The notes beneath the pieces were generated by a model. That model was not told the DNA's origin, ran no database searches, and saw only the letters and a program-made list of their open reading frames with translations. 57,514 bases of DNA from Pseudanabaena frigida (GTDB lineage: Bacteria > Cyanobacteriota > Cyanobacteriia > Pseudanabaenales > Pseudanabaenaceae). Shown here in pieces: positions 48,083 to 51,237 of this stretch; the stretch's first letter is position 1, and each line of letters begins with the position of its first letter. The stretch is from contig QBML01000036.1 in the NCBI GenBank assembly GCA_003242085.1, positions 1 through 57,514 on the forward strand. Reading direction: 5' to 3'. The translations under genes and the position numbers were made by a program.

Positions 48083-49912
48083 ATGAAACGTTTGGCTTTG
48101 TTGGTTGGCACAAGTGAATATCCTGAACGTGAAAAACTTCCACCTTTGCATGGCTCTTTGCTGGATGTGGATGCGATGCAGCGCGTGTTGGTGGCAAATG
48201 GTGAGTTTGCCACAGAAGATGTTGTGGTTTTAAAAAATGCTTCGAGACAGGTGATCGAGGATGCGATTCACAATTTGTTTAATGGGCGCAATCGCCAAAA
48301 AGATGATCTGGTGCTGTTTTATTTTTCGGGGCATGGGATCGTTGATGAGGCGAACAAGTTGTTTTTGGGTACGCCTAGCACGCGCAAGGAGGGAAATAAG
48401 ATCGTTAAGCCCACAACTGTGGCGGCAAATTATTTGCAAGAAGCGATGAATGATAGCAAGTCACAGCATCAGGTGTTGATTTTTAACTGTTGCTTTAGTG
48501 GTGCATTTGCTCAGGGTATGACGGTGATGGATGATAGTTCGGTGAACCTCAAGAGTCAGTTGGGAGGTAAAGGACGAGCGATTTTGACTTCTTCAAGCTC
48601 AACCCAGTTTTCATTTCAGCCTGATGGGGAGATGTCGATCTATACGCGCTATTTGGTGGAGGGGATTGAGACGGGGGCGGCGGATCGGGATGGAGACAGA
48701 AAAATCTCTGTTGATGAGTTGCATGAATATGCGGCGCTAAAAGTGTCGCAAGAGTCGCCAAATATGACTCCTGCGTTTTATCCTGTGGAGCAGGGTGGCA
48801 AGATTTATATTGCGAAGGTTGCTCAATCGAATGACGATCCGCGCTTGATTTATAGGCGCGAGTTAGAAAGTCGGATTGTGGATGGAAAGTGGTCGATTCC
48901 TGCTAGACGTTTGCTAGATTCTTTGCGAGTTAGATTGGAATTGTCGGCTGAGGATGCTGAAGGGATTAAGTCAGATGTCTTGAAGCCGATACTGGCTAAG
49001 GTGCGGAAACTGGAAGAGTATGAGGAACTGCTAAAGGAAATGCTTGCCGAACGAAATCCTCCATCGACTCAAGAGTTAAAAGATTTGCGAGATTATCAGA
49101 AAGATCATTTGCGATTGCGCGATGAGGATGTTGCGGATATTGATCGCAAACATGAATTAATAGTTTCTTCTAAGATTCGTAACTTGGCTAATAATGAATT
49201 GATCATTGTTAAAGAATACAAACCGCAAAATCTTATTTTGGATTTACCCAATGGCGTGAAATTAGAGTTAGTGGATATTCCTGCGGGAAGTTTCTCAATG
49301 GGAAGTGATGACTATGATAGTGAAAAGCCAATTCATAAAGTTACTTTGCCAGCTTTTAAGATTGGAAAATATCCGATTACGCAGAAGCAATATCAGTCGG
49401 TGATGGGAAATAATCCATCGAATTTCAAAGGTGACAATCTTCCTGTTGAGAAAGTGTCGTGGGATGATGCAATTGCCTTTTGTAAGAAGATATCAAAAAT
49501 AACGGGTCAAAAATTAAGTTTACCTAGCGAAGCCCAATGGGAATATGCTTGTCGGTCTGGAAGTACAGGAAAGTATTGTTTTGGTGATGATGTTAATCAA
49601 TTAGAGAAGTATGCATGGTATGATAAGAACTCAGGAAGTAAAGCTCATCTAGTTGGAGAGAAGTTAGCAAATTCTTGGAGATTGCATGATATGCATGGCA
49701 ATGTCTGGGAATGGTGCGAAGATTTATGGCACGGAAATTATAAGGGTGCACCAACAGATGGAACTGCTTGGCTAAAGGACGGCGAACCAAATATACGCTC
49801 CCTTCGTGGTGGCTCGTGTTTCAGTGGCGGTATCTATTGTCGTTCAGCGTATCGCGGTAGGAACCTTGCAGGCGAACGCAACTACGGTATCGGTTTTCGA
49901 GTTGTAGTTTGA
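48083..49912 (+). CDS. Caspase (orthocaspase) - helical adaptor - FGE-domain protein
   Basis: 609 residues. Residues 1-245 are a C14 caspase-like peptidase: LALLVGTSEY at the start, catalytic His84 in FYFSGHG and Cys137 in FNCCFSG. Canonical prokaryotic sites read D-x-C-x-S-G; here the Asp is Asn135, so the usual S1 acid is missing. Residues about 250-375 are helical with two related units (RRELESRIVDGKWSIPARRL and EYEELLKEMLAERNPPSTQE), resembling effector-associated/TerB-like adaptors. Residues about 390-609 are an FGE-sulfatase fold (LVDIPAGSFSMGS, EAQWEYACRSG, MHGNVWEWCED, RSLRGGS). AAGGAA precedes the ATG. The FGE fold likely senses or binds ligand, and the protease is the effector. Confidence 0.92.
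   Translation: MKRLALLVGTSEYPEREKLPPLHGSLLDVDAMQRVLVANGEFATEDVVVLKNASRQVIEDAIHNLFNGRNRQKDDLVLFYFSGHGIVDEANKLFLGTPSTRKEGNKIVKPTTVAANYLQEAMNDSKSQHQVLIFNCCFSGAFAQGMTVMDDSSVNLKSQLGGKGRAILTSSSSTQFSFQPDGEMSIYTRYLVEGIETGAADRDGDRKISVDELHEYAALKVSQESPNMTPAFYPVEQGGKIYIAKVAQSNDDPRLIYRRELESRIVDGKWSIPARRLLDSLRVRLELSAEDAEGIKSDVLKPILAKVRKLEEYEELLKEMLAERNPPSTQELKDLRDYQKDHLRLRDEDVADIDRKHELIVSSKIRNLANNELIIVKEYKPQNLILDLPNGVKLELVDIPAGSFSMGSDDYDSEKPIHKVTLPAFKIGKYPITQKQYQSVMGNNPSNFKGDNLPVEKVSWDDAIAFCKKISKITGQKLSLPSEAQWEYACRSGSTGKYCFGDDVNQLEKYAWYDKNSGSKAHLVGEKLANSWRLHDMHGNVWEWCEDLWHGNYKGAPTDGTAWLKDGEPNIRSLRGGSCFSGGIYCRSAYRGRNLAGERNYGIGFRVVV
49817..49891 (+). other. Candidate DGR-type variable region at the 3' end of the caspase-FGE gene
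   Basis: This encodes CFSGGIYCRSAYRGRNLAGE then RNYGIG, just before FRVVV and the stop. Diversity-generating-retroelement targets have the same frame (RGGSW, CRSA-R, NR..., IGFRV) with Asn-coded positions randomised. Here the predicted variable codons mostly end in C or T (ttc, agt, ggc, ggt, atc, tat, ctt, tac), as expected if derived from AAY codons by adenine mutagenesis. Plain FGE proteins look similar, so this is a hypothesis. No template repeat or reverse transcriptase is in the window. Confidence 0.3.
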
Positions 49913-50266
49913 GTTTCACTCTTCTTGTTTTTGGGCGTGAGGACTTACGTTCTTTACACTCTTTCCCTTTTTTTCCTCTCGCAGTTAGGCGATTAAATTT
50001 TGAAGGAGCGAAATAATATATTTAAGCAAATAGCTGTGATTTCTATGACGAAGTTACACCACAGCAAATGGCAATAATACCAAGAAATAAATTTCTTGGC
50101 TAAAAGCTAAAGTCAGTTAAAACCGACTAAATCATTATTAATTTTTAATTAACCCGTTTCAACGGGTTTAAGCTCTCAGCCCGCAATTTATTGCAGGGTT
50201 TTTATTGGCATTACAAATTAAAGCTAAAAAGACATATAATCAGAAAAAGTTTAAAGCTACACAGAG
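49913..50266. other. 354-bp gap before the transposase
   Basis: No gene. It holds the left 123-bp repeat of the IS200-like element (50076-50198) and, before it, an AT-rich tail of the caspase gene without a strong terminator hairpin. Confidence 0.6.
50076..50198 (+). repeat. Left 123-bp repeat of the IS200-like element
   Basis: Differs from the right copy at few places. In the first hairpin the closing pair a...t replaces c...g and the loop taaa replaces ttta, so pairing is kept. Confidence 0.85.
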
Positions 50267-50677
50267 ATGGCATTTTGGAGAACCTACTATCATCTGATTT
50301 GGGCTACATCAGCACGTCAACCTTTGATTACACCTGAAAAAGAATCGGAGTTGTATGGATATATAATTGGCAAATCTGATGCATTAAACTGCATTATCCA
50401 TGCGATTAATGGAACCGAAGATCACATTCACATTGTTACATCAATTCCACCCAAAATTTCTATCGCTGATTTTGTAAAGCAAATCAAAGGGAGTAGTGCT
50501 TATCACATGAATCATTTGCCTTCTGCTGCTGAATTAGCTTTTGCTTGGCAGTCAGGTTATGGTGTGTTTACTCTGGGTAGTAAACAACTTGAGACAGCTA
50601 AAAAATACGTTGAAAATCAAAAAGTTCATCACGCTGAGGGAAAGATAATCAAATTACTGGAAATAGAAGAGCATTGA
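50267..50677 (+). CDS. tnpA: IS200-like / REP-associated Y1 transposase
   Basis: 136 residues, complete. The HUH motif is H53-I-H55 in TEDHIHIV. The nucleophile is Tyr114 in QLETAKKYVENQKVHH. FAWQSGYGVFTLGSKQ (about 92-107) is typical of Y1 transposases. It cuts and joins single-stranded DNA at hairpins. Start ATG 50267 is supported by the N-terminus FWRTYYHLIWATSARQPLIT. It sits between two 123-bp direct repeats and looks intact. Confidence 0.93.
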   Translation: MAFWRTYYHLIWATSARQPLITPEKESELYGYIIGKSDALNCIIHAINGTEDHIHIVTSIPPKISIADFVKQIKGSSAYHMNHLPSAAELAFAWQSGYGVFTLGSKQLETAKKYVENQKVHHAEGKIIKLLEIEEH

Positions 50678-50699
50678 GCGCTGTCGGCTATCAACCAAG

Positions 50700-50822
50700 A
50701 ATACCAAGAACTTTAGTTCTTGGCTAAAAGCTAAAGTCAGTTAAAACTGACTAAATCATTATTGATTTTTAATTAACCCGTTTCAACGGGTTTAAGCTTT
50801 CAGCCCGCAATTTATTGCAGGG
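50700..50822 (+). repeat. Right 123-bp repeat of the IS200-like element
   Basis: Direct copy of 50076-50198. It ends directly against the open tail of a truncated gene at 50823. Confidence 0.85.
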
Positions 50823-50903
50823 CGATTTGTCTATGAGCCTTACGAATGGCAAGGAGGGGAACTTCAAGAAGGACTTCCAGTAAAATTTAATCAAAACCAA
50901 TAA
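50796..50903 (+). pseudogene. Tail of a truncated gene interrupted by the repeat
   Basis: From 50823 an open frame reads RFVYEPYEWQGGELQEGLPV then KFNQNQ and stops at TAA 50901-50903, four bases before xisI. It has no start codon and the frame goes back only into the mobile-element repeat (to 50796). The composition looks like real protein. It may be the end of the gene that preceded xisI (the usual partner is xisH, but the tail does not look like XisH to me). Confidence 0.5.
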
Positions 50904-50907
50904 CCAA

Positions 50908-51237
50908 ATGGAAAAACTAGCCAAATATCGCCAAATTGTCCGCGAATTACTAATCGCTCATGCCACTACAAACGAGCCAAACATCGAATGTCAACTCATC
51001 TTTGACACCGAACACGATCGCTACCAAATACTCGATCTTGGCTGGCAAGGACTAACCCGTATTTATGCCTGTTATATCCATTTAGACATTAAAGACAACA
51101 AAATCTGGATTCAGCACAATATGACCGAAGCCGATCTCGGTCAAGAGCTAGTTGAAAAAGGCTTACCAGCCTCAGATATTGTCTTAGGCTTGCATCCCCC
51201 ATACAAGCGTCCTTACACTAACTACGGTGTGGCTTAA
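50908..51237 (+). CDS. xisI: XisI family protein (fdxN element excision controlling factor)
   Basis: 109 residues. MEKLAKYRQIVRELLIAHAT at the start, then DRYQILDLGWQGLTRIYACY and EKGLPASDIVLGLHPPYKRP at the end are the XisI family hallmarks. XisI and XisH regulate excision of the nifD/fdxN elements in heterocyst-forming species, but the pair occurs widely as stand-alone accessory genes. XisH is missing here; the preceding gene is a truncated remnant. The role in a non-heterocystous host is unknown; some authors treat XisHI as toxin-like accessory genes. Confidence 0.93.
   Translation: MEKLAKYRQIVRELLIAHATTNEPNIECQLIFDTEHDRYQILDLGWQGLTRIYACYIHLDIKDNKIWIQHNMTEADLGQELVEKGLPASDIVLGLHPPYKRPYTNYGVA

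What the first reader, a model, noticed from the sequence alone, without database searches (positions are those of the whole stretch)
50076..50822. IS200-like transposase between two 123-bp direct repeats with covarying hairpin
The two repeats differ at few sites, and the first hairpin changes its closing pair from c-g to a-t while pairing stays intact. The loop is also changed from ttta to taaa. This covariation suggests the hairpins are functional (REP/BIME-like) and not just copied ends. Such a repeat on both sides could let the unit move or amplify as a cassette together with flanking genes.
Basis: seen in the sequence. Interest (0 to 1): 0.6.

Follow-up and report, generated by a model that had tools for sequence, protein, structure and literature searches.

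The report
IS200-like enzyme with dispersed twin-hairpin repeats
A small DNA-cutting enzyme from a little-studied IS200-like group sits between two copies of a short repeat that folds into pairs of hairpins; similar hairpin repeats flank many of its relatives and are scattered through several cyanobacterial genomes, which suggests that the enzyme keeps or spreads such repeats rather than being an ordinary jumping gene.

Summary
In detail: two 123-bp direct repeats (7 mismatches) flank one intact Y1 transposase gene, and the first-hairpin covariation is real. Each repeat is an inverted pair of twin-hairpin units (H1, ~12-nt linker, H2). Three more full copies lie in this genome away from tnpA, and 26 of 58 genomes searched, this one included, hold the repeat, with pairing kept. 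The enzyme has the signature of TnpA-Y1 subclass 1.2, tabulated by its describers as REP "no" (PMC6006769). Yet twin hairpins flank 42 of 46 high-scoring (mostly cyanobacterial) and 18 of 59 other subclass 1.2 genes, against 0 of 22 other Y1 tnpA genes and 11 of 144 ordinary ORFs. Linker type changes once on the TnpA tree; units are dispersed in all six genomes tested. Best reading: a REPtron/REPIN-like system run by a class-1 enzyme. Against it: 18 of 21 repeat-bearing congeners lack this tnpA, part of the copies sit in TIR-type MITEs, no clean empty site was found, and movement was not observed. Movement of the whole cassette is unsupported.

The parts
50072..50198 (+). repeat copy R1 (inverted pair of twin-hairpin units); H1 50080-50099, H2 50111-50128 (one A.C mismatch), H3 50151-50168, H4 50180-50198 (one bulged A)
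50267..50677 (+). tnpA, 136 aa, Y1 HuH transposase with subclass 1.2 signature (DHIH, WQ, YVENQKVHH)
50696..50822 (+). repeat copy R2 (inverted pair of twin-hairpin units); H1 50704-50723, H2 50735-50752, H3 50775-50792, H4 50804-50822
50908..51237 (+). flanking gene xisI (PF08869); context, not part of the element
48083..49912 (+). flanking gene: caspase-like (PF00656) plus FGE-sulfatase (PF03781) domains; context only

Best explanation
This is a REPtron-like locus: one chromosomal HuH tyrosine transposase gene of subclass 1.2 flanked by repeats that are its likely substrates. Shown: the repeats are inverted pairs of twin-hairpin units (H1, linker of about 12 nt, H2); units occur dispersed and without tnpA; twin hairpins flank subclass 1.2 genes far more often than control genes; unit type and TnpA clade go together. 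Inferred: TnpA binds a unit as single-stranded DNA, uses the (G/T)TAG-like bases at the foot of H1 as guide through its invariant WQ region, cleaves beside the unit with Tyr114 and His53/His55, and so moves or copies single units or inverted pairs, while the tnpA gene itself stays in place.
For: Solo copies in the own genome with a single close tnpA. Twin hairpins in 500-bp flanks: 42 of 46 subclass 1.2 loci over 145 bits and 18 of 59 other subclass 1.2 loci, against 0 of 22 other Y1 tnpA loci and 11 of 144 ordinary ORFs of 1.2-bearing genomes. Left-right flank similarity above the best Y1 control: 39 of 46 and 46 of 59, against 2 of 144. Linker type A (24 loci) or B (13) changes once on the TnpA tree; 10 of 47 loci unlabelled. 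Many dispersed matches in 6 of 6 genomes tested, with sharp edges about 51 nt apart. CTA/TAG at a linker end: 60 of 118 linkers against a shuffle mean of 16 (largest of 500: 28), and 16 of 31 against 3.9 (largest 10). Two-sided pair changes in H2 and H4. Catalytic residues and WQ invariant in 45 of 45 aligned proteins; WQ was part of the search pattern for 13 of these, so 32 count as independent. Only 1 of 72,556 plasmid records holds a relative at E<=1e-15, unlike a spreading IS.
Against: Of 21 congeneric genomes with the repeat (the own one included), 18 lack a close tnpA, among them a single-contig genome, G023, with at least 15 matches. By a strict pattern 15 of 69 genus copies have both ends and 16 one end of a MITE TIR, so part of the spread has another cause. 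Outside the high-scoring group only 18 of 59 loci pass the twin descriptor. The tag is TTAG or TCAG in the window, not GTAG, and only about half of the linkers are tagged. No clean empty site was found. By sequence and fold the protein is nearest to IS608/ISDra2 TnpA, with TnpAREP 4er8 at rank 30. No binding, cleavage or movement was observed; co-diversification can follow from linkage alone.
Confidence: 0.7

Rival explanations
1. An ordinary IS200/IS605 insertion sequence whose end hairpins became near-identical; solo repeats are IS remnants.
For: Fold and sequence nearest to IS608/ISDra2 TnpA; the IS200/IS605 family model scores 92 bits, over its cut-off of 55.
Against: One cassette in the genome; each flank carries a whole four-hairpin repeat; units are dispersed alone; subclass 1.2 signature; 22 other Y1 tnpA controls show no twin hairpins.
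Confidence: 0.1
2. The repeats are MITEs spread by TIR (DDE-type) transposases, and tnpA is a bystander caught between two copies.
For: 15 of 69 genus copies have both ends of TIR TAGGACTTACGCA, 16 have one; 19 such elements have inner length 122-126 nt; two other TIR types also hold the unit; 18 of 21 repeat-bearing congeners lack a close tnpA.
Against: 38 of 69 copies show neither end by that pattern; no match of this TIR with up to 2 mismatches in the window; flank association with subclass 1.2 tnpA across several phyla; single units elsewhere end at the hairpins.
Confidence: 0.12
3. The hairpins act as terminators, mRNA stabilisers or protein sites; their place around tnpA reflects regulation of the gene.
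For: Strong hairpins in intergenic DNA with kept pairing.
Against: Tie to one transposase subclass and not to other Y1 tnpA or ordinary ORFs; two-hairpin unit with a shared linker; Rfam matches stay below the gathering scores.
Confidence: 0.05

Closest known systems
TnpAREP (RAYT) REPtrons with REPs, BIMEs and REPINs (class 2 of Quentin et al. 2018; REPINs of Bertels and Rainey 2011)
   Same: One low-copy chromosomal HuH Y1 gene flanked by repeats whose copies are dispersed as singles and inverted pairs; TAG-like bases at a hairpin foot; WQ as in several class 2 subclasses
   Different: Y motif Y---Q--HH instead of Y---NP; RAYT model 19.8 bits against a cut-off of 80; two-hairpin unit; tag TTAG/TCAG in the window
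TnpA-Y1 subclass 1.2 (Quentin et al. 2018)
   Same: DHIH, WQ, Y---Q--HH, low copy number, Cyanobacteria and Bacteroidetes among hosts
   Different: Described as REP 'no' and without typical IS200 end structures; here flanked by twin-hairpin repeats, and hosts in more phyla
IS200/IS605 insertion sequences (subclass 1.1)
   Same: Single-domain Y1 TnpA fold and catalytic residues
   Different: No second copy of the cassette; whole repeat on both sides; dispersed solo units
TIRYTs/TIRtrons and GTAG repeats of Di Nocera et al. 2013
   Same: Y1 genes flanked by inverted structures; GTAG repeats reported in Cyanobacteria and Planctomycetes; some REP dimers inside longer palindromes
   Different: Quentin et al. 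place 20 of 26 TIRYTs in subclass 2.1 and 6 in 2.2 and 2.5; the figures with GTAG sequences could not be read, so overlap of repeat families is not excluded

Membership tests
TnpA-Y1 subclass 1.2 | HuH motif DH[IV]H, W motif WQ, Y motif Y---Q--HH | tested here: met
   DHIH, WQ, YVENQKVHH in the window protein
TnpA-Y1 subclass 1.2 | low genomic copy number | tested here: met
   one match in the own genome
TnpA-Y1 subclass 1.2 | no associated REPs (as tabulated in 2018; a reported property, not a definition) | tested here: not met
   twin-hairpin repeats on both sides and elsewhere
TnpAREP / RAYT (class 2) | Y---NP motif and RAYT model score | tested here: not met
   Y---Q--HH; NF047646 19.8 bits, cut-off 80
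REPtron | tnpA flanked by REP-like hairpins with copies elsewhere in the genome | tested here: met
REP | GT[AG]G at the 5' foot of the hairpin | tested here: inconclusive
   TTAG/TCAG in the window; GTAG read in type B and some planctomycete units; CTA/TAG enriched over shuffles
REPIN / BIME | two REP units in inverted orientation, dispersed | tested here: met
IS200/IS605 insertion sequence | further whole copies of the element in the genome | tested here: not met
   one cassette only; a single-copy IS cannot be excluded by this alone
IS200/IS605 insertion sequence | insertion next to a fixed tetranucleotide without target duplication | not testable with these tools
   no clean empty site found
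TIR-type MITE | terminal inverted repeats at the element ends | tested here: not met
   not at the window copies for the TIR tested; met by a subset of genus copies

The most novel reading that the evidence does not exclude
Subclass 1.2 TnpAs are a REP-type transposase lineage of class 1, separate from RAYTs and present in Cyanobacteria, Bacteroidetes, Planctomycetes, Acidobacteria, Chloroflexi and others; each maintains its own family of two-hairpin REPs, in which the (G/T)TAG-tagged hairpin is the cleavage guide and the second hairpin a further recognition part.
Probability: 0.5. Interest if true: 0.75.

Novelty: new variant of a known kind. Interest (0 to 1): 0.6.

Why it matters
Subclass 1.2 TnpAs were described in 2018 as IS-like enzymes without IS properties and without REPs, so their role was open. 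A candidate substrate makes their biochemistry directly testable, offers a possible enzyme for abundant hairpin repeats of cyanobacteria, and would mean that REP maintenance exists in class 1 as well as in RAYTs.

Tried and rejected
Cassette transposition: set aside, because no second copy was found. Known RNA family: best match 28.4 bits against a gathering score of 95; taken as chance. Clean empty sites: L265 against 12 genomes gave a 368-bp segment of G025, holding a unit pair, that is absent from G023 but lies between two copies of another 105-bp repeat, so recombination explains it as well. L238 against 7 genomes gave a site with two tandem unit pairs in G115, absent from G291, G153 and G123 and replaced by other sequence in G100 and G176; the edges are not clean. 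Empty palindromes of the TIR3 kind: 0 of 26 genomes for an exact pattern. Structure: the model (mean pLDDT 90.3) matches IS608/ISDra2 TnpA best by E-value and TnpAREP 4er8 at rank 30 with the lowest rmsd of the 30 Y1 matches, 3.3; a monomer model cannot settle the dimer type, so nothing is built on it. The mismatched-pair null (99% point 46.5, exceeded by 24 of 49 and 29 of 61 loci) was dropped as main control because repeats shared between loci contaminate it.

Rows dropped from flank counts: L176 (the window again), L199 (same stretch as L106), loci with a run of N, and loci with under 200 bp on either side. The group over 145 bits (46 loci) is cyanobacterial except L100 and L111; 13 of the 46 come, whose search pattern contained WQ; without them 32 of 33 have a twin. 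The 59 others include at least three cyanobacterial loci (L071, L104, L105). One of the 20 'random' regions of 1.2-bearing genomes, L244, is a contig that holds a tnpA; it had no twin. An earlier count said 22 of 69 copies lie in TIR elements; the recount (15 both ends, 16 one, 38 none) replaces it.

Full report
Observation. The two repeats are real: 127 bp at 50072-50198 and 50696-50822, 94% identical, with 8 mismatches, 7 over the 123 bp named. As single strands the copies fold with z -4.5 and -7.8. Between them lies a 136-aa Y1 transposase (PF01797, 99.2 bits; IS200/IS605 model 92.2 bits, RAYT model 19.8 bits below its cut-off of 80). A half repeat, 92.5% identical over 53 nt, lies on a plasmid of Pseudanabaena sp. 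ABRG5-3, so the genus is probably Pseudanabaena (inference).

Anatomy. Each repeat is an inverted pair of units. Unit one of R2 reads H1 CCAAGAAC..GTTCTTGG, linker CTAAAAGCTAA, H2 AGTCAGTT..AACTGACT. Unit two, on the other strand, has H1 CCCTGCAATAAATTGCGGG with a bulge, linker CTGAAAGCTTA, H2 AACCCGTT..AACGGGTT. Read towards H1, the linker ends in TTAG or TCAG at the hairpin foot, where known REPs carry GTAG.

Copies. The own genome has five full copies: R1, R2 and three solos at 85, 81 and 76%, plus a weak half match at E 0.002. It has one close tnpA. Of 58 genomes searched, 26 hold the repeat, the own one included (at most 15 candidates per genome were scored, so copy counts are lower bounds). 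Within the genus 21 of 26 genomes hold it, and only 3 of these 21 (G000, G006, G016) have a close tnpA. Loss of the enzyme with persistence of repeats, as reported for E. coli REPtrons (PMC3733652), would give this; so would spread by another route.

Pairing. In 69 distinct genus copies, Watson-Crick cells are 517 of 548 (H1), 437 of 483 (H2), 441 of 483 (H3) and 257 of 276 (inner H4); two-sided-change cells are 5, 58, 5 and 43. Registers slid by 1 or 2 pair in at most 56% of cells (H3 slid by +1); inner H4 slid by -2 still shows 25 two-sided cells. Cells count sequences, not events, and template switching in near-palindromes can produce such changes without selection. H1 loops occur in both orientations (CTAAAG 15, CTTTAG 1; CTCAAG 28, CTTGAG 1 of 69), as hairpin inversion would give.

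The enzyme. DHIH, WQ and Y---Q--HH match the signature that Quentin et al. 2018 give for subclass 1.2 (PMC6006769; section 18, part 1 of section 15, and passages read). [quoted passage not shown] Their automatic REP search addressed TnpAREP-encoding genomes; their supplementary files were not readable here. In 386 cyanobacterial genomes, 34 have a hit of 118 bits or more, and the next hits score 81 bits and below. A pattern scan of named genomes gave 80 loci, the best of 578 confirmed, from many phyla; its pattern includes WQ, so WQ in those loci is by construction.

Association. In 500-bp flanks a twin-hairpin descriptor (two perfect stems of at least 6 bp, loops 2-6, 6-18 nt apart) finds a twin at 42 of 46 loci over 145 bits (both sides 25 of 46), at 18 of 59 other subclass 1.2 loci and at 0 of 22 other Y1 tnpA loci; under 1% of dinucleotide-shuffled flanks have one. 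Of 144 ordinary ORFs from 20 regions of 1.2-bearing genomes, 11 have one. Left-right flank similarity above the best of the 22 Y1 controls occurs at 39 of 46 and 46 of 59 loci, against 2 of 144 ORFs. Sampled regions hold 26 twins in 392 kb of 1.2-bearing genomes and 12 in 400 kb of genomes without; family-type units, judged by eye, were seen only in the former. These 26 include twins of other kinds.

Linker and tag. CTA at the start or TAG at the end of a 9-15-nt linker is found in 60 of 118 linkers of the high-scoring group (shuffle mean 16, largest of 500 shuffles 28) and 16 of 31 of the others (3.9, largest 10); by locus, 32 of 42 and 10 of 19. On the TnpA tree (47 rows, quick method) linker type A (24 loci) and B (13) change once; 10 loci were unlabelled. 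Types were set from DNA alone. Linked inheritance would also give this pattern, so it shows long association, not enzymatic action.

Dispersal. Matches to a type A unit pair: 116 in G115, 98 in G291, 42 in G277; to a type B pair: 102 in G178, 75 in G301, 95 in G382. Unit pairs match their own complement, so many places count twice, and 40 candidates per genome were scored. In 32 units read from G115, C at -1 (30) and G at -2 (26) are kept on the H1 side and little beyond; several of these sit in larger shared contexts and are not independent. Outside cyanobacteria genome-wide dispersal was not tested.

Second route of spread. By a strict pattern 15 of 69 genus copies have both ends of TIR TAGGACTTACGCA, 16 one end, 38 neither; 19 elements holding the unit have inner length 122-126 nt. 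Units also sit in two other TIR types. Either MITEs took up the unit, or units insert near the centre of palindromes, as Di Nocera et al. 2013 report for some REP dimers (PMC3733652; section 5 and passages).

Mechanism. Shown: anatomy, dispersal, association, catalytic residues and WQ conserved in 45 of 45 proteins, 32 of them not chosen by a WQ pattern. Inferred: recognition as single strand, tag as guide, Tyr114 cleavage. Quentin et al. call W94, Q95 and R104 well conserved in class 2 groups with typical REPs and tie the region to GTAG recognition in E. coli TnpAREP, while calling the role of W94 unclear. That the WQ here does the same is my inference.

Novelty. Seven searches of the held open-access library listed no report of REPs with subclass 1.2. 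Most subscription papers are not held, and Elhai et al. 2008 on cyanobacterial repeats was not held. The 2021 study of TnpAREP substrates (PMC8266576, passages) does not mention subclasses. Bertels and Rainey 2011 (PMC3116915) was seen in passages only. I rate this a new variant of a known kind: it works like a REPtron, but its enzyme is not a RAYT.

Noticed in passing
L003:1483, L046:1483, L048:1484, L286:295 and others: A MITE with TIR TAGGACTTACGCA...TGCGTAAGTCCTA has the twin-hairpin pair as its body, with near-constant inner length (19 elements of 122-126 nt); two other TIR types (L038, L039, L297) hold it too.
   Followed up: partly
L265:2284-2437: Another repeat of about 154 bp, with at least 24 listed matches of 94% identity or more in genome G023; not identified.
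   Followed up: no
L265:7621-8199: A 368-bp segment with a unit pair is present in G025 and absent from G023, between two copies of a 105-bp repeat.
   Followed up: partly
window 49913-50907: In G008 and G014 the gene before xisI is a 138-139 aa xisH-like ORF (name recalled, not tested by a model); G010 keeps a remnant with stops; in the window the repeat-tnpA-repeat stretch lies there instead.
   Followed up: partly
window 48083-49912: One gene with a caspase domain (PF00656) and an FGE-sulfatase domain (PF03781).
   Followed up: no
L190 and L204, downstream flanks: Tandem arrays of twin units beside tnpA, spaced about 181 bp (L190) and 98 bp (L204).
   Followed up: no
H1 loops of genus copies: Loops occur with their reverse complements (CTAAAG 15, CTTTAG 1; CTCAAG 28, CTTGAG 1 of 69), as hairpin inversion would give.
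   Followed up: partly
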